Assembly: GCF_010977575.1 (NCBI RefSeq)
Contig: NZ_CP048812.1
Location: 2,666,001-2,730,000 of the forward strand
Length of the DNA: 64,000 bases
Reading direction: 5' to 3'
Origin: Halomonas socia
GTDB taxonomy: Bacteria > Pseudomonadota > Gammaproteobacteria > Pseudomonadales > Halomonadaceae
Shown: piece after piece, positions 2,220-41,791 of the stretch
How the letters are laid out: every line of letters starts with the position of its first letter
Numbering within the stretch: position 1 is the stretch's first letter
Program-made: the position numbers and the translations under genes
Notes under the pieces: generated by a model
Databases searched by the model: none
What the model saw: only the letters and a program-made list of their open reading frames with translations
What the model was told of the DNA's origin: nothing

Positions 2220-2295
2220 GTCCCATTCGTCTAGTGGTCCAGGACACCGCCCTTTCACGGCGGTAACAGGGGTTCGAACCCCCTATGGGACGCCA
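2220..2295 (+). tRNA. tRNA-Glu (UUC), copy 1
   Basis: The 76-nt cloverleaf has a GUCCCAU/AUGGGAC acceptor stem, anticodon loop CUUUCAC giving anticodon UUC, T-arm GGGGTTCGAACCCC and an encoded 3' CCA. It reads GAA/GAG. It is the first of three identical copies, each followed by tRNA-Gly. Confidence 0.97.
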
Positions 2296-2340
2296 CTTCC
2301 TCTCGTCAGGTGCTGGATGATCGGTTGGTGAAGGGCCTAC

Positions 2341-2415
2341 GCGGGAATAGCTCAGTGGTAGAGCACAACCTTGCCAAGGTTGGGGTCGCGAGTTCGAATC
2401 TCGTTTCCCGCTCCA
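2341..2415 (+). tRNA. tRNA-Gly (GCC), copy 1
   Basis: The 75-nt tRNA has acceptor stem GCGGGAA/TTCCCGC, anticodon loop with GCC (CTTGCCAAG), T-arm GCGAGTTCGAATCTCGT and an encoded CCA. It reads GGC/GGU. It lies 45 nt after tRNA-Glu copy 1 in the same presumed transcript. Confidence 0.97.
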
Positions 2416-2432
2416 AGCACTACAAGCATTGC

Positions 2433-2508
2433 GTCCCATTCGTCTAGTGGTCCAGGACACCGCCCTTTCACGGCGGTAACAGGGGTTCGAACCCCCTATG
2501 GGACGCCA
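2433..2508 (+). tRNA. tRNA-Glu (UUC), copy 2
   Basis: Identical in sequence to copy 1. It follows tRNA-Gly copy 1 after a 17-nt spacer whose sequence (AGCACTACAAGCATT) reappears, slightly changed, before copy 3. Confidence 0.97.
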
Positions 2509-2535
2509 CTCGATCATCGATAGATTGCGATACAA

Positions 2536-2610
2536 GCGGGAATAGCTCAGTGGTAGAGCACAACCTTGCCAAGGTTGGGGTCGCGAGTTCGAATCTCGTT
2601 TCCCGCTCCA
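2536..2610 (+). tRNA. tRNA-Gly (GCC), copy 2
   Basis: Identical to tRNA-Gly copy 1, with anticodon GCC and encoded CCA. It is followed by a damaged 3' part of another tRNA-Gly. Confidence 0.97.
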
Positions 2611-2637
2611 AGCAAGACCCGAGCAGGCCAACGTGAC

Positions 2638-2684
2638 GGTCGCGAGCTGGTGCGCCAGCCCGGTCGATCTCGTTTCCCGCTCCA
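2638..2684 (+). pseudogene. Decayed 3' part of a tRNA-Gly
   Basis: The segment reads GGTCGCGAG, then about 20 foreign bases, then ATCTCGTTTCCCGCTCCA. The two flanks are the 5' side of the T-arm and the T-arm/acceptor 3' side of the neighbouring tRNA-Gly genes. The T-loop is replaced and there is no D-arm, anticodon arm or 5' acceptor strand, so it cannot fold as a tRNA. It is best read as a scar of unequal recombination in the array. Confidence 0.75.
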
Positions 2685-2701
2685 AGCACCACAAGTATTG
2701 C

Positions 2702-2777
2702 GTCCCATTCGTCTAGTGGTCCAGGACACCGCCCTTTCACGGCGGTAACAGGGGTTCGAACCCCCTATGGGACGCCA
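2702..2777 (+). tRNA. tRNA-Glu (UUC), copy 3
   Basis: Identical to the other two tRNA-Glu copies. The spacer before it is a near copy of the spacer before copy 2, supporting duplication of a Gly-Glu unit. Confidence 0.97.
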
Positions 2778-2799
2778 CATTGCTGCCACGCTTCATCAT

Positions 2800-2874
2800 G
2801 CGGGAATAGCTCAGTGGTAGAGCACAACCTTGCCAAGGTTGGGGTCGCGAGTTCGAATCTCGTTTCCCGCTCCA
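2800..2874 (+). tRNA. tRNA-Gly (GCC), copy 3
   Basis: Identical to the other two tRNA-Gly genes and the last tRNA of the array. No clear hairpin plus T-run follows; only a short A-rich stretch is seen, so the transcript end is not defined. Confidence 0.97.
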
Positions 2875-26514: not shown

Positions 26515-27455
26515 TCAGGCCTTCCAGGGCAGCGGTGGGGCGGTCAGCCTCGGGCCGTCGAACTCGGGAATGCTGCCGAAGCGGGGACTCTCGGCCTCCC
26601 AGTCGCGCTGGGCCTCGCTGATCTCCGCCTTGCTGTGGCCGACGAAGTTCCACCAGATCAGGATCTCCTCGCCCAGGGGCTCGCCGCCCACCAACAGGAC
26701 CCGGCCGCTGGGGGGAGCGTCACCGTCACCTCGTCGCGGCCGCGGCCCAGGTAGGCCAGCTCATGGGTGGCGAAGGTCTCGCCCTCGATCTCCAGGTCGC
26801 CCTCCAGGGCCACCAGGCCGAACTCGAAGTCCTCGCGTAGCGCCAGACGCAAGCGGCCACCCCGGGGGCTGGCCAGGTCCAGGGCTATCAGGGGTGAGAA
26901 GGTCAGGGTTGGGGCCCGTTGGCCGGCGAAGTCGCCCACCAGCAGTGTCAGCTCCACGTCCTCTTCCTGCCAGCGGGGCAAAGTCGAGTAGTGGTCGAAG
27001 CGCGGGTCGGTGGCGCGGTCCGCCTCGGGTAGGGCGATCCACAGCTGGGCGGCATGCAGGGTCGCCTCGCCGGGCAGCGACTCCTCGGTATGACTGATGC
27101 CGCGGCCGGCGGTCATCAGGTTGACTTGGCCAGGGCGGATCACCTGGGCGGTGCCCAGGCTGTCGCGGTGGAGGATCTCACCCTCGAGCATCCAGGTGAA
27201 GGTCTGCAGGCCGATATGCGGATGGGGGCCGACCCGAAGGCCGGGGTCGTCCGCCGCGAAGTCGGCCGGGCCGATATGATCGAGGAAGCACCAGGCGCCG
27301 ATCAGCCGGCGCTGACGGCGGGGCAGGGCGCGGTTGACGGGAATGCCCCCTACCTCGGCGCTATGCGGCGAGACATGCTGTACCTGGCGCTTGCCGTCGA
27401 CGACGGGGCAGTCGAGAGAGCTGGCAAGTTCGCGTTGGTTGACGAGATTGCTCAT
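26515..27455 (-). pseudogene. Pirin-family protein, C-terminal frameshift
   Basis: A cupin-fold pirin of about 310 residues if read through. The N-terminal part is intact: VGPHPHIGLQTFTWMLEGE carries metal-binding histidines, and MTAGRGISHTEES follows. Near 26710-26715 a run of six G (C on the coding strand) breaks the frame. In the given frame the protein ends 17 residues later at 26658; with one more base it continues as GRVLLVGGEPLGEEILIWWN and ends at 26515. The AGGAG site fixes the start at 27455. It could be a real mutation or an assembly error. Confidence 0.8.
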
Positions 27456-27558
27456 GGTTCGGGACTCCTGTGGGCAAAAGGAGAGAGGCTCGGCCTTCTA
27501 GCATAGGCCCTTCCGGGCATTGCCAGGGACCGTGTCCTTGCCGCGAGACCGGCGACAC

Positions 27559-27585
27559 GGCCAGGGCGCGGGATCCGCCCTGGCC
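27559..27585 (-). terminator. Hairpin after the isochorismatase gene
   Basis: A 10-bp stem GGCCAGGGCG/CGCCCTGGCC with a short loop begins 10 nt downstream of the minus-strand stop at 27595. There is no clear T-run, so it may act as an mRNA end stabiliser or weak terminator. Confidence 0.5.
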
Positions 27586-27594
27586 GGTCGCTGC

Positions 27595-28221
27595 CTAGCC
27601 CAGCGGGCTCTGCTGGTTATAGCTCTGCATCAGGTTGGCATAGGCGGGCAGGTGGCCGGCCAGCAGGCCGCCGAAGCCCTCGATATCGTTGCGCCAGTCG
27701 CGGTGCAGCTCACCACCGACTGCAAACCAGGTCATCAACTGGGCGCCGGCCTGGGACATGCGATTCCAGGCGGCGTCTCGGGTGATGGGGTTGAAGGTCC
27801 CGGAGGCGTCGGTGACGACGAAGACCTCATAGCCCTCCTCCAGGGCCGAGAGGGTCGGGAAGGCCACGCACACCTCGGTGACCACCCCGGCGATCAGCAG
27901 CTGCTTCTTGCCGGTGGCCTTGATGGCGGCGACGAACTCCTCGTTGTCCCAGGCGTTGATCTGCCCGGGGCGGGCGAAGTAGGGCGCCTGGGGGAACATC
28001 TCCTTGAGCTCAGGCACCATGGGGCCATTGGGGCCATCCTCGAAGCTGGTGGTGAGGATGGTGGGAATGTCGAAGAACTTGGCGATATCGGCCAGGGCCA
28101 AGACATTGTTCTTGAAGTCGTCCGGGCTGAAGTCGCGCACCAGGGAGAGCAGGCCAGCCTGGTGGTCCACCATCAGCAGGGCCACGTCATCTTTGTCGAG
28201 TCGGTGGTAGGTAAAGGACAT
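27595..28221 (-). CDS. Isochorismatase-family hydrolase (YcaC-like)
   Basis: A 208-residue cysteine hydrolase. The catalytic aspartate lies in ALLMVDHQAGL near residue 19 and the catalytic cysteine in AGVVTEVCVAFPTLSALE near residue 117; the cis-peptide VVTE motif precedes it. The length and the FEDGPNGPMVPEL segment match the YcaC group, whose substrate is unknown. An AGGAG site precedes the ATG. It lies between two pirin genes on the same strand, a common association. Confidence 0.88.
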   Translation of the reverse strand: MSFTYHRLDKDDVALLMVDHQAGLLSLVRDFSPDDFKNNVLALADIAKFFDIPTILTTSFEDGPNGPMVPELKEMFPQAPYFARPGQINAWDNEEFVAAIKATGKKQLLIAGVVTEVCVAFPTLSALEEGYEVFVVTDASGTFNPITRDAAWNRMSQAGAQLMTWFAVGGELHRDWRNDIEGFGGLLAGHLPAYANLMQSYNQQSPLG

Positions 28222-28247
28222 GATCGTTCTCCTTTCGCTGTCATGGG

Positions 28248-28305
28248 CCTGCCCGGCGACCATCGCCGGGCAGGGACGGGGAGCATGAGTCGACTCATGC
28301 TCCCC
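28248..28305 (-). terminator. Two perfect hairpins between the second pirin and isochorismatase genes
   Basis: The first hairpin (28248-28274) has a 12-bp stem CCTGCCCGGCGA/TCGCCGGGCAGG with loop CCA. The second (28278-28305) is a perfect 28-bp palindrome with half-site GGGGAGCATGAGTC and contains the stop codon of the pirin gene. No T-run follows. They may attenuate or stabilise the mRNA between the two genes. Confidence 0.6.
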
Positions 28306-29167
28306 TCGGCTTGCCGAACTTCCCGGCGTGGAAGTCGGCAAAGGCTTGGTGGAGCTCGGCCTCATGATTCATCACGAAGGGGCCTTGTCCCGCCACTGGC
28401 TCGTCAATGGGCTCGCCGCTCAGCAGCAGCAGCCTGGCGTCGTTGTTGGCCTCCAGGTGGAGGGCCTCGCCACGGCGCTCGAAGGCGACGACGCTCTCGT
28501 CGCGCACGAGGTGCTCACCGTTGACCAGCAGCGTGCCCTCCAGCACCACCAGCAGGGTGGTATGGCCCTCGGGGACCTCGAGCTGGGCGGCGCCACCGGC
28601 CACCAGGCGCAGGTCCCAGACATTGATCGGGGTAAAGGTGCGCGCCGGGCCCTCTCGATCAAGATAGCGGCCCGCCACCACCCGGACCTGGCCGGCATCG
28701 CCCGGCAGGTCGATCCGAGGAATCTCGCCGTCGAGCAGGGTCTGGTAGGCCGGTGGGGCGGACTTGTCCCGGGCCGGCAGGTTGATCCACAGCTGCACCA
28801 TCTCCAGGATGCCGCCGCGCTCACCGAAGGCCGGGGCGTGGTACTCCTCGTGGACGATGCCGGCGCCGGCGGTCATCCACTGGACGTCGCCCTCGCCGAT
28901 CCGGCCGCCATGTCCCGCCGAGTCGCGGTGCTCCAGTTCCCCCTGGTAGACCAGCGTCACGGTCTCGAAGCCCCGGTGGGGATGGGCACCGACGCCGCGA
29001 GCGTGCCGGGTTGGCCCGAAGCGATGCGGGCCGGCATGGTCGAGCAGCAGGAAGGGGCTGAGATGCGCGGCGCCCAGGCGGTCGTAGCTGAGCAGGGAAC
29101 GCACCGGAAAGCCATCGCCGACCCAGTGGCCATGCGGGGCACCGTATACGGCTTGAATTTTCTTCAT
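28295..29167 (-). CDS. Pirin-family cupin protein (YhhW-like)
   Basis: A 290-residue double-cupin protein. The N-terminal cupin has the metal ligands in GVGAHPHRGFETVTLVYQGE (His pair) and MTAGAGIVHEEYH. The C-terminal cupin contains LLVVLEGTLLVNGE, and the ending FGKPRGA is family-like. Homologues such as YhhW have quercetin dioxygenase activity in vitro. Unlike the other pirin at 26.5-27.5 kb it is intact. It is transcribed divergently from a LysR regulator 121 bp away, which probably controls it. Confidence 0.9.
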   Translation of the reverse strand: MKKIQAVYGAPHGHWVGDGFPVRSLLSYDRLGAAHLSPFLLLDHAGPHRFGPTRHARGVGAHPHRGFETVTLVYQGELEHRDSAGHGGRIGEGDVQWMTAGAGIVHEEYHAPAFGERGGILEMVQLWINLPARDKSAPPAYQTLLDGEIPRIDLPGDAGQVRVVAGRYLDREGPARTFTPINVWDLRLVAGGAAQLEVPEGHTTLLVVLEGTLLVNGEHLVRDESVVAFERRGEALHLEANNDARLLLLSGEPIDEPVAGQGPFVMNHEAELHQAFADFHAGKFGKPRGA

Positions 29168-31152: not shown

Positions 31153-32220
31153 GTGTCACATGCCTCGCTGAAGGCCCTGCTACGTGCGCTTGTGATCGGG
31201 GCGCTGGGCGGGCTGCTGTTCGCGCTGCTCAATCTGCCGCTACCGTGGATGCTGGGCCCGCTCACCGCCAACCTGCTGGCTTCGGGGCGTGGTCTCGACG
31301 TACGCGTGCCGGAGGGCCTGCGCGAGGCATTTCTGGGCGTGATGGGGCTAGTGCTGGGCAGTCAGGTCACGCCGCAGCTGGCCGAGCGGCTGCTCGACTG
31401 GCCGCTGTCGGCGGCACTGCTACTGGTCGGGGTGGCGGCGTCCACGGCGGTGGCGGCGGCCTGGTACCGGCGTTGCGGCTTCGATCCGGTGAGTGCCTGG
31501 TTTGCCTCGGCGCCCGGGGCGATGCCGACCATGATCCTGCTCGGTGAGAAGTGCGGCGGCGACCCGCAGCGGGTCGCGGTGTCCCAGTCGCTGCGTATCA
31601 TCCTGGTGATTCTGCTGCTGCCACCGCTGTTCTGGGCCTATGAGGGCGGTTCGCCCACTCAGGCGGCGGTGAGTGAGCCGGCGGCACACCTGTGGATGCT
31701 GCTGGCGCTGCCGCTGGTGATCCCGCTGGGCAACTGGCTGCGCCTGCCGAGTGCCTCGCTATTGGCGCCGCTGGCCTTCGCGGCACTGCTGTCGGGCACC
31801 GACTTGGCCAGCCTGCAATTGCCGGAGTGGGGGCTCAACGTGATGCTGTGGGGGCTGGGTAGCGCCATTGGCTGCAAGTTTCGCGGGCTGTCGCGGCGCC
31901 GCTTCGGCAAGTACCTGTGGCAGGCTGCCCTGGCCACGCTACTGGCCCTGCTGGTACTGGCCGTGTTCGCCGAGTTGATCCACCGCCTGCTGGGGGTGCC
32001 GCGGGACGTGGCGCTGTTGGCGTTGGCGCCGGGGGGCATCGGCGAGATGGCGATACTTGCGGTGGCGCTGGATATCGACCCAGTGTTCGTCGCTTTCCAC
32101 CATATCCTGCGTATGGTGGCGCTGATGATCGTGGCACCGTTCTGGGCACGCTATCTGACCCGACGCTATCCGCCGAGTGCCTCCTCGACGACCACACCGC
32201 GGCCGCCGGGGAAGGGCTGA
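31153..32220 (+). CDS. AbrB-family (PF05145) membrane protein
   Basis: A 355-residue inner-membrane protein of the AbrB (sometimes mis-called ammonia monooxygenase) family. It has about ten helices in two similar halves, each with a conserved Pro/Gly-rich segment: LPLPWMLGPLTANLLAS near residue 30 and LALAPGGIGEMAILAVALD near residue 290. The middle segment FASAPGAMPTMILLGE is the first-half counterpart. Transport function is assumed, substrate unknown. A GTG start follows AAGGAGGGG. It is convergent with the next gene: their stop codons abut at 32220/32221. Confidence 0.85.
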   Translation: MSHASLKALLRALVIGALGGLLFALLNLPLPWMLGPLTANLLASGRGLDVRVPEGLREAFLGVMGLVLGSQVTPQLAERLLDWPLSAALLLVGVAASTAVAAAWYRRCGFDPVSAWFASAPGAMPTMILLGEKCGGDPQRVAVSQSLRIILVILLLPPLFWAYEGGSPTQAAVSEPAAHLWMLLALPLVIPLGNWLRLPSASLLAPLAFAALLSGTDLASLQLPEWGLNVMLWGLGSAIGCKFRGLSRRRFGKYLWQAALATLLALLVLAVFAELIHRLLGVPRDVALLALAPGGIGEMAILAVALDIDPVFVAFHHILRMVALMIVAPFWARYLTRRYPPSASSTTTPRPPGKG

Positions 32221-34266
32221 TCAGTTGGCGTCGAGCCCGGGGCTGGCCTGCAGGTCGGTCGCCGGTACGCGGTCGGCGCCCCAACTGCGGTGCACATGGC
32301 CGATTACCCGGTCGAGCTCCTGTTGGGTGATGGTGGCCAGCTCGCCGCGCTCCAGTGGGTCGAAGTGAAAGATATACAGCCGCGAGGCGAGTTGCTCGAA
32401 GGGCAGTGAGGCCTCGCCAAAGCGCTCGCCCTGGCCCGCAGTACTGACCTTGACGCCATCGCCCCAGTCCTGGCCGCTATCGTTGTTGGGATTGTAGAAG
32501 TAGACCCGCATCACGTCCTGGGGATCGAGGTTGACCCGTAGCAGGGTGATGGCGTGCCAGCCGATGAAGCGCGCCGCGCTGTCGGTCACGGCGATGCCCG
32601 CCGGTTGCGGATGGATCAGTGGTTGGTTGCCGTTGTAGTAGGGGTGATAGGCGGCATAGAAGTGGCGCAGGAAGTCCTCGAGGCCCTCGAGCTGGCCGGT
32701 CGCCACGTCGACGTTGATACGAAAGCCGCGCCCCGACCACCAGCCGTGAAACTCGGGATTGACCCAGCGGTGCGGGTCGCCCTCGCGGCCGATGCAGCGC
32801 CTCCCCATCTCGGCGTAGATGCGATCGAGGTGCGGCACTACCAACAGCGACACCGCATCCAGGTCCATGGGCAGTTCGGTGGCAACGCCAGAGAGGCTTT
32901 CGCGGGACGAGATCGGCTGGCCCTCGAAGTGCATCACGATCTCGTCGTCACGCGCCGCCCAGGCGACCATCTGCAGCAGATAGTCAGGATCGTTGTAGGC
33001 CCACATCGACAGCGCGCGGGCCGACTGACAGGTGGGGTTGTTGCCCTGGCCCACACCGAGAGGCAGCCCCAGCATGCACAGCACGCCCTCTAGCAGCCGT
33101 GCCCGCGGTGATACCGCGTCGCCGTGGGCCATCTTCAGGCGCTGCTGCGACCACTCCGAAAGCGTCAATCCCAGCTGGCGCCACATGGCCGGTGCTACCG
33201 GCGGCTGATAGAGAATGCCGCGCTCGAGCAGTAGCGCCAGGCCGTAGATGGCCTGCGGCGTGGCCGGGTAGACGCCACCGCGGATCAGCGCATGGACCAG
33301 CTCGCGATAGCACAGCAGGCAGTCGCGGCCGGTGGAGGAGAGACCCAGCGTCTCGGCCAGCAGGTGGTCGCTATGCTCCAGCAGGTGGCGCATCAGCACG
33401 CTGTGGTAGGGCGAGACCAGGCCGGTGTCGTGCATGGCGCGGGCAAAGCCGCTGGCCTCGTACTGCAGGGCGGCCTGGTCCATGCTCTCCAGTCGCTGCC
33501 GGTAGATGTCGATACCCGGATCTTCGCGGCATGCCTGGGTCGGCCCGAACAGCGAGCTGACCAGGCGGTCGGCGCCCTGGCCGCTGGCGCCCAGGTCGAT
33601 GGCCGGATTGGCCTGGCAGATGGCGATCTGGGTGATCATCTGCTTGACCGGTTCGACCTGCAGCGGGCGCTGGCGCAGGATGCGCCATATTTCATCGATC
33701 AACTGGTCGACGATATGTTCGTAACCGATGCGCTCGGCGAGGTGCTGAAACAGCAGGCGAGGCAGCTGTGCCAGGCGCCCCTGGGTCTCGCGCTCGGCTT
33801 CGCTGGGCGCACCGAACAGCAGCCACAGGTTTAGTGCCATCACCTGGGTGAGGTAGTGGTGGGCCTGTTCGGCGGAGATCAGCGGGTGCTGGTAATCGCC
33901 CATGGCCACCGCCAGCAGGCGCAGCTCGCTGAGCGATTCGATCACCACACTGTTGGGATCGGCGCTCTTCAGCGCATGGGTGGTCAGTGAGGGCACCAGA
34001 TACTGCGGCGTCGCCCAGTCGGAGCCGAGGAACAGCCCGGCTGTCTCGAGGGCTTCGGCGCGGGCCTCTACCGCCGCACAGCCGCCGGGCTGCAACATCA
34101 CCCGGCGCGCGGTGTCGAGGACGCGCCCCAGCTTGCTTGGCTTGGCGAAGTCGCGGGCCGCATCGAGCAGCTGTATCGCCTCGTCCAGCTTGGCCAGCAA
34201 GCCGGTCAGCTTGTCCCCGTCGGTTGGGGGTTGTGTTGCACTGTTCGTATCAGGGTGCTCGGTCAC
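32221..34266 (-). CDS. 681-residue protein with papain-like Cys-His-Asn signature
   Basis: No named family was recognised. The N-terminal 400 residues are mostly helical, without signal peptide or membrane segments. The C-terminal part contains VGQGNNPTCQSARALSMWA. Gln407 lies six residues before Cys413, the same spacing as the papain oxyanion Gln and nucleophile. GWHAITLLRV supplies His571 and FYNPNND supplies Asn592/594. This order and local pattern suggest a clan CA cysteine peptidase or transglutaminase-like enzyme. The GTG start follows AAGGAG. It lies 31 bp after an ATP-grasp ligase gene, surely in one operon. A ligase plus peptidase pairing suggests making and trimming a peptide-like bond; this is inference. 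Confidence 0.6.
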   Translation of the reverse strand: MTEHPDTNSATQPPTDGDKLTGLLAKLDEAIQLLDAARDFAKPSKLGRVLDTARRVMLQPGGCAAVEARAEALETAGLFLGSDWATPQYLVPSLTTHALKSADPNSVVIESLSELRLLAVAMGDYQHPLISAEQAHHYLTQVMALNLWLLFGAPSEAERETQGRLAQLPRLLFQHLAERIGYEHIVDQLIDEIWRILRQRPLQVEPVKQMITQIAICQANPAIDLGASGQGADRLVSSLFGPTQACREDPGIDIYRQRLESMDQAALQYEASGFARAMHDTGLVSPYHSVLMRHLLEHSDHLLAETLGLSSTGRDCLLCYRELVHALIRGGVYPATPQAIYGLALLLERGILYQPPVAPAMWRQLGLTLSEWSQQRLKMAHGDAVSPRARLLEGVLCMLGLPLGVGQGNNPTCQSARALSMWAYNDPDYLLQMVAWAARDDEIVMHFEGQPISSRESLSGVATELPMDLDAVSLLVVPHLDRIYAEMGRRCIGREGDPHRWVNPEFHGWWSGRGFRINVDVATGQLEGLEDFLRHFYAAYHPYYNGNQPLIHPQPAGIAVTDSAARFIGWHAITLLRVNLDPQDVMRVYFYNPNNDSGQDWGDGVKVSTAGQGERFGEASLPFEQLASRLYIFHFDPLERGELATITQQELDRVIGHVHRSWGADRVPATDLQASPGLDAN

Positions 34267-34297
34267 ACCGACTCCTTATCCCGGTTTCTGCCAGGGA

Positions 34298-35521
34298 TTA
34301 TACATAGAAGTCCAGATCCTCCTGGTGCTTGAGCAGGTCACGCAGCTGATGAGGATCCTCGCCCTTGAAGTAGATTAGCCCCCAGTGGGTGCCGAAGGCG
34401 GTACGCTTGGTCACCGTCTCTTCCATCGGCGGCGTCAGCTCGTGGGACTCGAAGTAGGGGTGGTCCTCGACCTCTTCGGGGATCTCCAGGCGGCTGACCA
34501 CGCGACGCCGCGGATAGACGCCGAAGCAGCCGGCATAGCCGTTGGCATCCTCGACTTCCCTGGGGAAGAATGCCTTGATCTCGTCAGTGCTGGCCTTGGG
34601 ATCGAACACCAGCATCGAGGCCTGGTAGGCGTTGAAACCGTAGACCCGCTCGAGCAGCTCGAAGACCTTGAAGCCCGGCGGCCGGTAGGCGACTTCGCCG
34701 AAGTACATTTCGCCGTCGCTGGTGACGAAGTACTCCGGGTGGATCAGGCCGAACTCGATATCGAAGGTCTTGATCAGTTTCTCGATCTGGGCGGTGATCT
34801 GGGGGCGATACCTCTCCAGCTCCGGCGAGGCCGGAACGAACACCGAGTAGCCCAGGGTCACGTATTCGGAGATATTCAGAAACGCGATCTTGCCGTTGTG
34901 CACCCAGGCTTCGACGGCGAATTCCCAGCCGTCGAGGTGCGATTCCATCAGCACCGGAAACTCCTCGTCGGGGATCGAGTCGACCTCGTCCGGGGTACGA
35001 ATCACCCGGTGGCCGAGGCAGCCGGCCTTGTCGAAGGCCTTGAGGTGGATCGGATCGTTGGGGTCGCCGTCGAGCTTGAGCAGCGTCTGGTTGACGCGCT
35101 TGAGGAAGCGCACCACGTCCTCCTTGTCGTGGGCTTCCTCGAAGATACCGACGCGAATACCGCCGAGCTGGGCGCGGCGCTTCATCAGCGCCTTGTCGCG
35201 CAGCAGCAGCGACTGGCCGTAGAGGCGCGGGTTGTCGAGCAGCAGAGAGTTGATCGCCCCGGCCCACTCGACGGTCTCTTCGTAAAGTGGGATGGCCACG
35301 TTGACGCCCATCTCCTGGAGAGTCTCGGCGATCTCCATGGAGCGGTCGTTCAAGCGCTCGAAGTTCCACGATACATAGGGAATGTCGTGCTTCTCGCAAT
35401 ACTCTTCGGCCCAGTCCGGTGCCACCACCACGTAACGGCGGTCGAAATTCTCGGCGGCTTCGACGGCACTGAGGCTCCAGCCCAGGAGTGCGATATAGCC
35501 CTTGTTGGGATCCTTGGTCAT
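34298..35521 (-). CDS. ATP-grasp ligase (carboxylate-amine type)
   Basis: A 407-residue cytoplasmic enzyme with the three-part ATP-grasp fold. The pre-ATP-grasp Rossmann-like part is residues 1-105. The lysine region is SLLLRDKALMKRRAQLGG, the central part is VLMESHLDGWEFAVEAWV, and the metal-binding end is FGLIHPEYFVTSDGEMYFGE followed by YRPPGF. Such enzymes activate a carboxylate as acyl phosphate and join it to an amine. Substrates are unknown. GGAGG precedes the ATG at 35521. The only operon partner is the papain-like 681-residue protein; no amino-acid or nucleotide pathway genes are adjacent. Confidence 0.85.
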   Translation of the reverse strand: MTKDPNKGYIALLGWSLSAVEAAENFDRRYVVVAPDWAEEYCEKHDIPYVSWNFERLNDRSMEIAETLQEMGVNVAIPLYEETVEWAGAINSLLLDNPRLYGQSLLLRDKALMKRRAQLGGIRVGIFEEAHDKEDVVRFLKRVNQTLLKLDGDPNDPIHLKAFDKAGCLGHRVIRTPDEVDSIPDEEFPVLMESHLDGWEFAVEAWVHNGKIAFLNISEYVTLGYSVFVPASPELERYRPQITAQIEKLIKTFDIEFGLIHPEYFVTSDGEMYFGEVAYRPPGFKVFELLERVYGFNAYQASMLVFDPKASTDEIKAFFPREVEDANGYAGCFGVYPRRRVVSRLEIPEEVEDHPYFESHELTPPMEETVTKRTAFGTHWGLIYFKGEDPHQLRDLLKHQEDLDFYV

Positions 35522-35855: not shown

Positions 35856-36008
35856 TCCATTCTGGGTGGTCGGTTCCGGCTGCCTGTCGCTGTCGCTTTC
35901 CCCTGCGAGTCCCAGCCGCTAGAATGAATGCCCTGTCATGACAGCGCTTGCCGGCCTCGGCTTGGCGCCATCTTCGTCGTGAACCCGGCCGCAAGGATTC
36001 TGCCCGCA

Positions 36009-38027
36009 ATGAGCTATCAGGTACTGGCCCGCAAGTGGCGCCCGCGCACCTTCCACGAGCTGGTCGGCCAGGACCATGTGCAGCGTGCGCTGGTCAACGC
36101 CCTCGACCAGGGGCGCCTGCACCACGCCTATCTGTTCACCGGCACCCGGGGGGTGGGCAAGACCACCCTGGCGCGAATTCTCGCCAAGTGCCTCAACTGC
36201 ACCGCCGGCGGCCACGACGACAGCGCCGTGACGTCGACTCCCTGTGGCCAGTGCGAGAGTTGCCGAGCCATCGATGAGGGGCGCTTCGTCGACCTCATCG
36301 AGGTCGATGCCGCTTCGCGGACCAAGGTCGAAGACACCCGCGAGTTGCTCGATAACGTGCAGTACGCGCCGACCCAGGGCCGCTTCAAGGTGTACCTCAT
36401 CGATGAGGTGCACATGCTCTCTACCCACAGCTTCAATGCGCTGCTCAAGACCCTCGAAGAGCCGCCGCCCCACGTCAAGTTCCTGCTCGCCACCACCGAC
36501 CCCCAGAAGCTGCCGGTCACGGTGCTGTCGCGCTGCCTGCAGTTCACCCTCAAGAACATGCCGCCGGAGCGCATCGTCGAGCACCTCGGCAAGGTGCTGG
36601 GTGCCGAGGGTGTCGCGTTCGACGAGTCGGCACTGTGGCTGCTGGGACGCGCCGCCGACGGCTCGATGCGCGATGCCATGAGCCTTACCGACCAGGCCAT
36701 CGCCTTCGGCCAGGGCGCGGTGCACCAGGCCGACGTGGCGGCCATGCTCGGAACCCTCGACCACCGCCACCTGCTGGCGCTGGTCGAGGCGCTGGCCGAG
36801 GTCGACGCCGCCCGGGTGCTCAGCGAGGTGGCGGCCCTCGCCGAGCAGGGCCCCGATTTCGCCGGGGTACTCGACGACCTGCTCGGCACCCTGCACCGCC
36901 TGGCGGTGGCGCAAATGGTCCCCGACGCCCTCGACAACGGCCACGGCGACCGCGAGTCGCTGCTGGCCCTGGCCGCACGCTTTACCGCCGAAGACGTGCA
37001 GCTCTACTACCAGATTGGCCTGCAGGGCCGCGGCGACATGGATCACGCGCCTGATGCCCGCATGGCGCTGGAGATGACCCTGCTGCGCATGCTGGCCTTC
37101 CGCCCCCAGGGCGTGCCCAAGCCGGCCAGCACACCGCTGCCGATTAGTGGCACGGTGCCGCAACAGGGCCAGCCTGCTCCCCAGCAGGCGCCGCCTGCCG
37201 CTGCCGAGTCGTCGCCCCCGGCGCCTAGCGCGTCAGAGGTGCCGTCGCCGTCACCAGGCGCGGCCAAGCCCGAGCCCGACGCTGACACAGCAGCTGCCTC
37301 CGCGTCGCCGAGCGTGGAGCCGCCGCCGTGGGAGATGCCGAGCGAACCCCCTGCCCAGCCTGCAGCAGCAGCGATGAACGAGGCGGTCGAGCCGCACGCC
37401 GCAGCGCCTGTCCAGCAGGCCGCAGCCGAGCAAGATGTCTCCGCGCCGGTCGCCAATGAGGCGATACCCGAAGCGGCGCCAGCCGAGCAGGCTGCGGCCC
37501 CGCAGGACGCGCCGCTTGCCGAGCAGGTCGAGCTCCCGCCCGAGCCCAGGGTCGAGACCCAGCCGGATAGCGCCGAACCTGGCCCCGCGGCGCCAGCCGT
37601 TGGCGAGCATCGCGGCACCTTCGACCACGCCACCTGGCTGGCGCGCTTCGACGACCTGGGGCTTGGCGGGCTGACGCGCAACCTTGCCGCCCACTGCCTG
37701 GTCGAACATGACGACGGCCAGCGCCTGCAGCTTCGGCTCGACCCCAGCCAGGCGGCGATGAATGCCGAGGTCCACGTCGAGCGGGTCGAGAAGGCGTTGC
37801 TCGGGCTGGGAGTTTCGCGCCGGGTCAGCATCGAGCCCGGCGAGCTGCCCGCCGATATCGAGACACCGCGGGCGCTGGCCGATCGCCTCAATGCCGAGCG
37901 CCACGCCGCCGCGGTCAAGTCGCTGGAGGCGGACCCCCACGTACAGGAACTCCGCGAGGCCTTCGGTGCCCGATTGCTGGAAGCCTCGGTATCCCCACAG
38001 CAGCGCAGCGGCGAGGCCGCGCGCTGA
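36009..38027 (+). CDS. dnaX: DNA polymerase III subunit tau (and gamma)
   Basis: The clamp-loader ATPase. It begins MSYQVLARKWRPRTFHELVG, with Walker A GTRGVGKTT near residue 47. The zinc module runs from CLNC to CGQCESC (residues 65-85), followed by LIDEVHML and the SRC sensor. A Pro/Ala-rich linker (residues about 375-530) leads to the tau C-terminal domain (WLARFDDLGLGGLTRNLAA) that binds DnaB and alpha. At 672 residues it is close to the E. coli tau (643). No A-AAA-AAG slippery heptamer was found, so gamma may not be made by frameshifting here. Confidence 0.96.
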   Translation: MSYQVLARKWRPRTFHELVGQDHVQRALVNALDQGRLHHAYLFTGTRGVGKTTLARILAKCLNCTAGGHDDSAVTSTPCGQCESCRAIDEGRFVDLIEVDAASRTKVEDTRELLDNVQYAPTQGRFKVYLIDEVHMLSTHSFNALLKTLEEPPPHVKFLLATTDPQKLPVTVLSRCLQFTLKNMPPERIVEHLGKVLGAEGVAFDESALWLLGRAADGSMRDAMSLTDQAIAFGQGAVHQADVAAMLGTLDHRHLLALVEALAEVDAARVLSEVAALAEQGPDFAGVLDDLLGTLHRLAVAQMVPDALDNGHGDRESLLALAARFTAEDVQLYYQIGLQGRGDMDHAPDARMALEMTLLRMLAFRPQGVPKPASTPLPISGTVPQQGQPAPQQAPPAAAESSPPAPSASEVPSPSPGAAKPEPDADTAAASASPSVEPPPWEMPSEPPAQPAAAAMNEAVEPHAAAPVQQAAAEQDVSAPVANEAIPEAAPAEQAAAPQDAPLAEQVELPPEPRVETQPDSAEPGPAAPAVGEHRGTFDHATWLARFDDLGLGGLTRNLAAHCLVEHDDGQRLQLRLDPSQAAMNAEVHVERVEKALLGLGVSRRVSIEPGELPADIETPRALADRLNAERHAAAVKSLEADPHVQELREAFGARLLEASVSPQQRSGEAAR

Positions 38028-41125: not shown

Positions 41126-41791
41126 ATGAAACGCTATCGGGGGATAGGCCTGTCGCTGGTGTGCCTGATGCTGGCGGCACCGGCTGCATGGTCGCAGTCG
41201 AACAGCTGGGATGAGATTGCAGAACCCGGCGAGTTCGACTCGCTGGATGACGAGGCGCTGTTGGAGATGATCGACGATCTGCCACCTACCGCTGCGGGCG
41301 GTGGTGGAGGCGGCTGTGGCGCCGGCGGCGGCGAAGAGGGCGGCGGCTGCGGAGGCGGTTTCCTGCTCAGCGTCAATACCAGTGCCGACGCCGAGCCACC
41401 GTCACCAGCACCCGAGCCGCCGGCGCCGTCCAATCCGTCTACGCCAGGCAACGGAGGTGGTAACGGTGGTGGCGGAAGCGGCGGCAATGGCGGTGGCGCA
41501 GGCGGGGGAGGCAACGGCGGCGCAGGCGGTGGCAATGGTGGCGGTGGCGCAGGCGGGGGAGGCAACGGCGGCGCAGGCGGTGGCAATGGTGGCGGTGGCG
41601 CAGGCGGGGGAGGCAACGGCGGCGCAGGCGGTGGCAATGGTGGCGGTGGCGCCGGTGGGGGAAGCAACGGTGGTTCAGGAGGTGGGAGCGCTGGCGGCGG
41701 AACCGGCGGTGGCGCTAACGGCGGGAGTGGCGGTAACGGCGGCGGGGGTGCCGGTGGTGGCGCCAACGGCGGTAGCGGTGGCGGCAGCTGA
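41126..41791 (+). CDS. Secreted glycine-repeat protein
   Basis: A 221-residue protein with a signal peptide (cleavage near AAWSQS). A short acidic segment (EIAEPGEFDSLDDEALLEMI) is followed by a Gly/Cys patch (GCGAGGGEEGGGCGGG), a Pro/Ser spacer and about 110 residues of Gly-Asn-Ala repeats. The 17-residue unit GNGGGGAGGGGNGGAGG occurs twice exactly and more times with changes. Low-complexity structural or surface roles are plausible, but no family was recognised. It is a single gene, convergent with ptrB and separated by a hairpin. Confidence 0.7.
   Translation: MKRYRGIGLSLVCLMLAAPAAWSQSNSWDEIAEPGEFDSLDDEALLEMIDDLPPTAAGGGGGGCGAGGGEEGGGCGGGFLLSVNTSADAEPPSPAPEPPAPSNPSTPGNGGGNGGGGSGGNGGGAGGGGNGGAGGGNGGGGAGGGGNGGAGGGNGGGGAGGGGNGGAGGGNGGGGAGGGSNGGSGGGSAGGGTGGGANGGSGGNGGGGAGGGANGGSGGGS
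41483..41680 (+). repeat. 51-bp tandem repeat within the glycine-rich gene
   Basis: The units at 41531-41581 and 41582-41632 are identical, preceded by a 48-bp variant (41483-41530) and followed by a diverging partial copy. The unit length is a multiple of three, so gain or loss of units keeps the frame. Confidence 0.9.

What the first reader, a model, noticed from the sequence alone, without database searches (positions are those of the whole stretch)
32221..35521. ATP-grasp ligase paired with a papain-like 681-residue protein: candidate undescribed peptide-modification unit
Two genes 31 bp apart on one strand, with no other pathway gene beside them. Seen: one protein has ATP-grasp motifs (DKALMK, ESHLDGWEFAVE, and EYFVTSDGEMYFGEVAYRPPG split by role). 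The other has Q407-G-N-N-P-T-C413 with papain-like Gln-Cys spacing, H571 in GWHAITLLRV and N592/N594. Known: ATP-grasp enzymes form amide or related bonds, and clan CA enzymes cleave or transfer them. Inferred: a system that builds and hydrolyses, or transfers, an amide-linked metabolite or protein tag. The 400-residue helical N-terminal region of the partner matches nothing I recognise.
Basis: partly seen in the sequence, partly recalled or inferred. Interest (0 to 1): 0.85.

Follow-up and report, generated by a model that had tools for sequence, protein, structure and literature searches.

The report
Ligase–cysteine-hydrolase pair with deacylase partner
Two neighbouring bacterial genes, one that probably makes an amide bond and one that probably breaks one, were found together in every carrier genome tested; most of those carriers also hold a third, histone-deacetylase-like enzyme, which points to an undescribed pathway that builds and cleaves an amide.

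Summary
A 407-aa ATP-grasp protein (GRASP, 34298-35521 -) and a 681-aa protein (PAP, 32221-34266 -) lie 31 bp apart. PAP matched no Pfam or NCBIfam model. Q407, C413, H571, N592 and N594 are invariant in 105 distinct PAP sequences. Weak but consistent evidence supports a papain-like C-terminal domain; GRASP is structurally closest to L-amino-acid ligases. In two genome samples the genes occur in exactly the same genomes (8 of 274; 8 of 299). Of 80 kept relatives, 73 have GRASP adjacent; the other 7 lack an intact adjacent copy, yet all 7 genomes hold a GRASP elsewhere. New here: a histone-deacetylase-like protein (HDAC-X) tracks the pair: 7 of 8 carriers and 0 of 266 non-carriers at E<=1e-100 in the class sample. 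It adjoins the pair in three lineages, twice in operon-like order. Polyamine-transport-like genes directly precede a PAP paralogue in one lineage and the pair in another; osmolyte-related genes surround it in a third. Best reading: an amide conjugation-deconjugation pathway, most likely for a polyamine or similar diamine (0.4). Rivals: osmolyte pathway, reversible protein tag. My searches of the held literature found no description.

The parts
34298..35521 (-). GRASP: 407-aa ATP-grasp ligase of the L-amino-acid-ligase type
   Evidence: PF13535 ATP-grasp_4 at 24.7 bits (cut-off 27) and LAL_C2 weakly; best PDB sequence match L-amino acid ligase 4wd3 and 3vot/4wd3 by profile; Foldseek top three hits RizA 4wd3 (E 1.4e-15) and BL00235 3vot (model mean pLDDT only 66.8); candidate ATP-grasp residues invariant
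34267..34297 (-). 31-bp gap between GRASP stop and PAP start, same strand, consistent with one transcript
   Evidence: ORF coordinates; tandem order common in relatives
32221..34266 (-). PAP: 681-aa protein, helical N-terminal region plus papain-like C-terminal domain
   Evidence: No Pfam or NCBIfam family at E<=1 for the window's protein; over 30 members only stray weak Pfam hits, best E 0.011; AlphaFold2 mean pLDDT 85.3
33118..34266 (-). PAP N-terminal helical region, residues 1-383
   Evidence: Helical in the model; mean column identity 61% over 30 sequences; weak Foldseek hits to helical solenoids, none at E<=0.001
32224..33117 (-). PAP C-terminal papain-like domain, residues 384-681
   Evidence: Mean column identity 78% over residues 384-664 in 30 sequences; profile match to bacterial C1 papains at the His/Asn region, score 35.6, 0 of 100 column shuffles reach it
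33046..33048 (-). Q407 codon, candidate oxyanion-hole Gln (Gln-x5-Cys spacing as in papain)
   Evidence: Invariant in 105 distinct sequences; role recalled from papain
33028..33030 (-). C413 codon, candidate nucleophile at the start of a helix
   Evidence: Invariant in 105 distinct sequences; helix 413-425 in the model, but residues 408-411 just before it have pLDDT under 50
32554..32556 (-). H571 codon, candidate catalytic His in strand 567-580
   Evidence: Invariant in 105 distinct sequences; aligned with the papain His strand
32491..32493 (-). N592 codon, candidate third catalytic residue (N594 not excluded)
   Evidence: N592 and N594 both invariant in 105 distinct sequences; N592 directly follows strand 586-591

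Best explanation
The two genes encode the make-and-break core of an undescribed amide-conjugation pathway. GRASP uses ATP to activate an amino-acid-type carboxylate and join it to an amine, as its L-amino-acid-ligase relatives do (inferred from fold and motifs). PAP is a thiol hydrolase (or transferase), probably cytosolic, whose Cys413-His571-Asn592 site cleaves or exchanges that amide; its helical half recognises the conjugate or a partner (inferred). In most carriers tested a zinc-type histone-deacetylase-like enzyme, HDAC-X, removes an acyl group from the same class of amine (inferred from co-occurrence and gene order). The amine is most likely a polyamine or similar diamine, so the system would store, detoxify or recycle it as a neutralised conjugate. 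My estimates: functional pair 0.95; HDAC-X as third component 0.75; GRASP forms an amide 0.7; PAP acts on GRASP's product 0.5; polyamine or diamine substrate 0.35-0.4.
For: Pair: the same 8 of 274 and the same 8 of 299 genomes carry both (13, 20). GRASP lies next to PAP in 73 of 80 kept loci, and the 7 genomes without an intact adjacent GRASP each keep one elsewhere at 78-79% identity. In 31 stretches cut from other genomes, PAP and GRASP are neighbours in 20 and one gene apart in 2, while 5 hold PAP alone and 4 GRASP alone. The other genes around the unit change between lineages. Adjacent pairs diverge in parallel, r = 0.91 over 31 non-redundant of 85 pairs, at least partly shared ancestry. 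GRASP: Foldseek top hits are L-amino acid ligases. PAP: invariant site, papain-like order of elements, profile match at the His/Asn region. HDAC-X: strong full-length match in 29 of 34 carriers and 0 of 32 hand-chosen non-carriers; in the even class sample 7 of 8 carriers and 0 of 266 non-carriers at E<=1e-100. Gene order GRASP-PAP-HDAC-X in L137, PAP-HDAC-X-GRASP in L139, convergent with PAP in L154; on rough assumptions about 0.08 such neighbours are expected by chance, P for three or more 8e-5, or 6e-4 with two units per genome. Polyamine: PotF-PotG-PotH-PotI-like genes, then a PAP paralogue (without GRASP) 3 bp downstream, in L150; a weaker PotD/A/B/C-like set, then GRASP-PAP, in L079; an acetyltransferase after HDAC-X in L201 whose closest PDB entries are spermine/spermidine acetyltransferases; an acetylpolyamine amidohydrolase near the unit in L067.
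Against: No substrate is shown for any of the three proteins. Papain support is modest: hhalign probability 37% over 32 columns, the global run aligned neither the Cys nor the His/Asn region, and Foldseek on the full model gave nothing at E<=0.001. In the near-versus-far neighbour test the ABC permease family was 4 of 124 near and 2 of 121 far, so polyamine transport is no clear enrichment over all lineages. Acetylpolyamine-amidohydrolase-like genes are in 21 of 34 carriers but also 11 of 32 non-carriers. HDAC-X is missing in 5 of 34 carriers, including all 3 of the other class, and its best PDB matches are HDAC6-type rather than polyamine deacetylases. In the window's own genome HDAC-X is 2.6 Mb away in coordinates, beside ABC-transporter genes of another kind. 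Osmolyte-related neighbours in L134 and L083 point elsewhere.
Confidence: 0.4

Rival explanations
1. An osmolyte pathway: GRASP makes a small peptide-like or amino-acid amide compatible solute, and PAP with HDAC-X takes it apart when salt falls, in the manner of the NAGGN system.
For: In L134 four genes stand in one row on one strand: mechanosensitive-channel-like, GRASP, PAP, BCCT osmolyte transporter. A mechanosensitive channel also follows the unit in L083, and a large one lies about 6 kb from PAP in the window. The 80 best relatives are in records named for Halomonadaceae genera, Marinobacter, Guyparkeria, Saccharospirillum, Ectothiorhodospiraceae and one Haliea bin, groups that I mostly recall as marine or salt-loving. 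Proteins of carrier genomes are somewhat more acidic than those of non-carriers (median excess about 2.4% versus 1.1%, p = 0.014 with 22 and 18 genomes, 0.015 with the one small carrier also dropped, 0.007 with none dropped).
Against: The 80 are ranked by likeness to a Halomonas-type query, so the habitat pattern is biased. The acidity test compared stretches around the unit with stretches at contig starts and ignores relatedness; some carriers are not acidic (G625, G458, G290). Channel families were only 2 of 124 near, and not among the 25 families listed for the far set.
Confidence: 0.25
2. A reversible protein modification: GRASP adds an amino acid or small acid to a protein, PAP (with its helical recognition region) removes it, and HDAC-X deacylates lysines of the same target.
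For: PAP's helical half gives weak solenoid-like Foldseek hits, as a protein-binding region might; HDAC-X is closest to HDAC6-type domains in the PDB; GRASP and PAP are extremely conserved, as for a fixed macromolecular target.
Against: No candidate target or small tag protein of 80-90 aa or more is conserved beside the unit across lineages; shorter ones were not sought. GRASP's best structural matches are small-molecule ligases. Polyamine-type and osmolyte-type genes in operon-like order argue for a small molecule.
Confidence: 0.15
3. PAP is a scaffold or regulator of GRASP with a degenerate papain-like fold, and the conserved Cys-His-Asn is structural.
For: No activity is known; dozens of other residues across the C-terminal domain are equally invariant, so invariance alone does not prove catalysis.
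Against: Gln-x5-Cys, His and Asn occur in papain order, at the expected secondary-structure positions, and are invariant even in paralogues at about 41% identity (L097).
Confidence: 0.1

Closest known systems
L-amino acid ligases (RizA 4wd3, BL00235 3vot, YwfE/BacD)
   Same: ATP-grasp fold; GRASP's best sequence and structure matches
   Different: Sequence similarity is very low (phmmer E 0.0013; 16% identity in the fold match); GRASP has a fixed PAP partner; substrate unknown
Glutathionylspermidine synthetase/amidase
   Same: Works alike in outline: an ATP-grasp ligase paired with a papain-like amidase, with a polyamine as suspected substrate (the known enzyme is recalled)
   Different: Two separate proteins here; the only Pfam families listed at E<=1 are ATP-grasp_4 and LAL_C2, so neither its synthase nor its CHAP domain family
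Papain-like (C1) cysteine proteases
   Same: Gln-x5-Cys, His, Asn order; weak profile and Foldseek similarity
   Different: The Pfam C1 model finds nothing in the window's genome at E<=0.001; about 380-residue helical N-terminal region; no signal sequence seen by eye (not run through a predictor)
Bacterial histone-deacetylase-like amidohydrolases and acetylpolyamine amidohydrolases
   Same: HDAC-X is a clear PF00850 protein (over 300 bits in the four loci scanned)
   Different: A subclass with an N-terminal extension; full-length strong matches only in PAP/GRASP carriers among the genomes sampled
NAGGN osmolyte system
   Same: Ligase plus hydrolase in one cluster, linked to salt stress (recalled)
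   Different: No NAGGN model among the NCBIfam matches of GRASP and PAP at E<=1
Tubulin tyrosine ligase / vasohibin / HDAC6 set
   Same: Same three enzyme types: ATP-grasp ligase, papain-like protease, HDAC6-type deacetylase (recalled; vasohibin's place among papain-like enzymes seen in a passage of PMC10318531)
   Different: Bacterial and genetically linked; that passage gives vasohibin a Cys-His-Ser triad, whereas PAP has Cys-His-Asn; no tubulin implied

Membership tests
ATP-grasp superfamily / L-amino-acid ligase type | ATP-grasp fold and ATP/Mg residues | tested here: met
   Foldseek: 314 PDB matches at E<=0.001, top hits L-amino acid ligases (the GRASP model itself has mean pLDDT 66.8); candidate ATP/Mg residues invariant (their roles are recalled)
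ATP-grasp superfamily / L-amino-acid ligase type | Curated Pfam cut-off for PF13535 | tested here: inconclusive
   24.7 bits in hmmscan (cut-off 27); 26.3 bits, 27 with its neighbours in the frame, in the genome search
ATP-grasp superfamily / L-amino-acid ligase type | Forms a peptide bond between two amino acids | not testable with these tools
   needs an enzyme assay
Papain-like fold (clan CA) | Cys at the start of a helix, then His and Asn/Asp on strands, in this order | tested here: met
   C413 opens helix 413-425; H571 in strand 567-580; N592 after strand 586-591; all invariant.
Papain-like fold (clan CA) | Significant profile or structure match to solved papain-like enzymes | tested here: inconclusive
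   Foldseek no hit at E<=0.001; 7 of the 50 listed rows are papain-type proteases; hhalign probability 37%, 0 of 100 shuffles reach the score, global run uninformative
Glutathionylspermidine synthetase/amidase | Its synthase and CHAP Pfam domains | tested here: not met
   Pfam scan of both proteins at E<=1 lists only ATP-grasp_4 and LAL_C2
NAGGN osmolyte system | NAGGN synthase, amidotransferase and peptidase families | tested here: not met
   NCBIfam scan of GRASP and PAP at E<=1 gave no such model
Graspetide (RiPP) biosynthesis | Short precursor peptide gene beside the ATP-grasp gene | not tested
   No search for short precursor ORFs; neighbour calling used minimum lengths of 70-90 aa
Histone deacetylase superfamily (HDAC-X) | PF00850 domain | tested here: met
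   302.8, 321.2, 311 and 314.3 bits in the four subclass members scanned

The most novel reading that the evidence does not exclude
A bacterial counterpart of the tubulin tag cycle: an ATP-grasp ligase adds an amino-acid tag to a protein, a solenoid-guided papain-like enzyme removes it, and an HDAC6-type enzyme deacylates the same target, giving bacteria a three-enzyme erasable protein code.
Probability: 0.1. Interest if true: 0.9.

Novelty: new variant of a known kind. Interest (0 to 1): 0.62.

Why it matters
The three-gene association gives a concrete, testable set for finding the substrate. If the polyamine reading is right, it is a new route of polyamine conjugation and release; if the osmolyte reading is right, a new compatible-solute pathway; if the protein reading is right, a new reversible modification in bacteria.

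Tried and rejected
Pfam, NCBIfam and PDB sequence searches with PAP or its alignment gave nothing meaningful. Plasmids: one record with PAP, a 1.8-Mb Halomonas replicon. Viral contigs: 76 pattern matches, none a relative. A search with the PAP C-terminal profile in another class found it in 3 of 240 genomes, each within a frame of PAP length, and no remoter relative at E<=0.001. The near-versus-far neighbour Pfam test showed no clear enrichment of any family; it counts each protein cluster once and lists only 25 families a side. The PF00850 gene near the unit in 8 of the 80 kept loci (L067 shown to be an acetylpolyamine amidohydrolase; L013 only as PF00850; the other 6 not scanned) was set aside as a specific partner because 11 of 32 non-carriers have such a gene too. 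Carrier proteins were only weakly more acidic. In one search two non-carriers under 1,500 residues were dropped while one carrier (G264) of that size was kept; one search repeats it both ways. Of 13 loci from the C1 search, 10 went into the papain profile. and alignment A1 used a PAP reference lacking its start codon; A2 corrects this. The structure models are of the whole PAP and of GRASP; the PAP C-terminal domain was not folded alone. No paper describing the pair was found: searches were seen as listings with abstract starts, and of PMC10318531 and PMC8939145 I saw only the passages returned. The amidoligase survey by Iyer, Aravind and colleagues (recalled) was not held under the id that I tried, so a prior mention there is not excluded.
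Full report
What is there. The window lies in a 4.75-Mb single-contig genome. Two ORFs on the - strand, GRASP (34298-35521, 407 aa) and PAP (32221-34266, 681 aa), are 31 bp apart. An AbrB-family membrane protein gene (31153-32220 +) converges on PAP, and a DNA polymerase III tau/gamma-like gene (35928-38027 +, named by eye) diverges from GRASP.

Conservation. Halomonadaceae-named records have 77-97% identity; Marinobacter, Guyparkeria, Saccharospirillum and Ectothiorhodospiraceae records 77-78%, and one Haliea bin 81%. Paralogues and remote members reach about 41%. Across 30 members residues 384-664 have 78% mean column identity and residues 1-383 have 61%. In 106 rows (105 distinct PAP sequences) Q407, C413, H571, N592 and N594 never vary. 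GRASP is even more conserved, 87% mean column identity in 19 sequences.

Linkage. In an even sample of 274 genomes of the class, 8 hold PAP and the same 8 hold GRASP at E<=1e-40. In 299 genomes of the phylum the figures are again 8 and the same 8 (the samples overlap, and the window's genome is in both). GRASP is adjacent in 73 of the 80 kept loci; in one of these (L076) it is cut by the contig end and in another (L046) only residues 17-407 match. In the other 7 there is no intact GRASP beside PAP, and fragments remain in 3. All 7 genomes carry a full GRASP elsewhere at 78-79% identity; in one of them, G563, it is about 8 kb away with a PAP of its own (L182). Counting these 13 handles, the same-genus genomes, the two samples and the two further genomes of the other class, I met 34 PAP carriers and a GRASP in every one. 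In 31 stretches cut from such genomes, PAP and GRASP are neighbours in 20 and one gene apart in 2; 5 hold PAP alone and 4 GRASP alone, these being extra copies. Other neighbours change from lineage to lineage. This is what a self-contained unit with an obligatory ligase would show.

PAP. AlphaFold2 with 30 sequences gave mean pLDDT 85.3. Residues 16-400 are mostly helical. C413 opens a helix, H571 sits in a strand and N592 follows the next strand, the papain order (recalled). Residues 408-411, just before the Cys, are predicted poorly. Foldseek on the whole model gave no PDB match at E<=0.001; 7 of the 50 listed rows are papain-type proteases (fibroinase, a castor-bean endopeptidase, Amb a 11, ananain, bromelain), and many others are helical solenoids. 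A profile of ten bacterial C1 papain loci aligned to the PAP C-terminal profile at the His/Asn region (score 35.6, probability 37%, 32 columns); 0 of 100 column-shuffled profiles reached that score (maximum 31.1), the reversed profile scored 12.5 and the PAP N-terminal profile 16.5. A forced global alignment was uninformative. I take the papain-like fold as likely, not proven.

GRASP. Pfam ATP-grasp_4 is just below its cut-off; the PDB sequence search gives an L-amino acid ligase at E 0.0013. The AlphaFold2 model is moderate (mean pLDDT 66.8) but its Foldseek hits are clear: RizA first at 1.4e-15, then BL00235.

A third gene. Re-calling genes in 44 loci with codon usage trained on the unit and clustering neighbours showed a PF00850 histone-deacetylase-like protein, HDAC-X, in four of the 44. 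L137 has GRASP-PAP-HDAC-X on one strand with 6 bp between PAP and HDAC-X. L139 has PAP-HDAC-X-GRASP on one strand, PAP and HDAC-X overlapping by 4 bp. In L154 HDAC-X converges on PAP, and in L149 it lies 3 kb from a GRASP. L139 is a 5.6-kb contig of a fragmented genome, so it deserves caution. I then searched 66 genomes: 29 of 34 PAP carriers have a full-length match of at least 48% identity and 337 bits, and 0 of 32 non-carriers do, their best being 223 bits over part of the length. Those 32 were picked by me from the listed negatives. The even class sample, not picked by me, gives 7 of 8 carriers and 0 of 266 non-carriers at E<=1e-100; at E<=1e-70 three non-carriers show partial matches of 241-272 bits. 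Fisher p values are 4e-13 and 4e-11 at these two limits, but assume independent genomes, which they are not. A genome of the window's own family that lacks PAP (G276) lacks GRASP and HDAC-X too. Against this, HDAC-X is missing in five carriers, including all three of the other class, and in most carriers it is not next to the unit.

Clues to the substrate. In L150, from a genome of the family that I take for Marinobacter's because G338 of the same family has a contig of the same length as a named Marinobacter record, a PAP paralogue begins 3 bp after a putrescine-type transporter set: PotF-like (420 bits to a polyamine transport protein), PotG-like (542 bits), PotH-like (444) and PotI-like (430), the last three at about nine tenths of NCBI's equivalog cut-offs. 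In the Saccharospirillum locus L079 a polyamine-like ABC set directly precedes GRASP-PAP; its scores are far lower and its ATPase is as close to phosphonate transporters, so its substrate is less sure. After HDAC-X in L201 is an acetyltransferase whose best PDB matches are spermine/spermidine acetyltransferases (E 6.5e-11; the NCBIfam hits are weak and of other names), with a related gene after HDAC-X in L209. A PF00850 gene lies near the unit in 8 of the 80 kept loci; the one compared with the PDB, L067, is an acetylpolyamine amidohydrolase (438 bits), but such genes occur in 21 of 34 carriers and 11 of 32 non-carriers. One PAP paralogue is followed by a gene with a weak glutamate-cysteine-ligase match (L153). 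On the other side, L134 has a mechanosensitive-channel-like gene, GRASP, PAP and a BCCT osmolyte transporter in one row, and L083 a mechanosensitive channel after the unit. The near/far test shows neither theme as an enriched family, so both rest on a few operon-like cases. I lean to an amine conjugate, with an osmolyte pathway as the main rival.

Verdict. The new elements are genome-level evidence of linkage, the invariant site, and the histone-deacetylase-like third partner. None of the three proteins has a known substrate, and all mechanistic steps are inferred.

Noticed in passing
window 41126-41791 (+): A 221-aa ORF for a glycine-rich protein with tandem repeats of period 51 and 102 bp (95% and 85% matches), beginning with a possible signal sequence by eye.
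   Followed up: no
window 26658-29167 (-): Two pirin-like proteins flank an isochorismatase-like hydrolase, beside a LysR-type regulator; named by eye from the translations.
   Followed up: no
window 2220-2874 (+): Alternating tRNA-Glu and tRNA-Gly genes, three of each in about 650 bp.
   Followed up: no
L053, L058, L072 (about 5.6-6.0 kb): Fragments of a decayed GRASP gene beside an intact PAP, while another GRASP is kept elsewhere in each genome: apparent replacement of one copy by another.
   Followed up: partly
L148:5636-7546 and L153:5279-7174: A protein of about 636 aa lies near two PAP paralogues; the L148 copy has a beta-ketoacyl-ACP synthase III-like C-terminal half.
   Followed up: no
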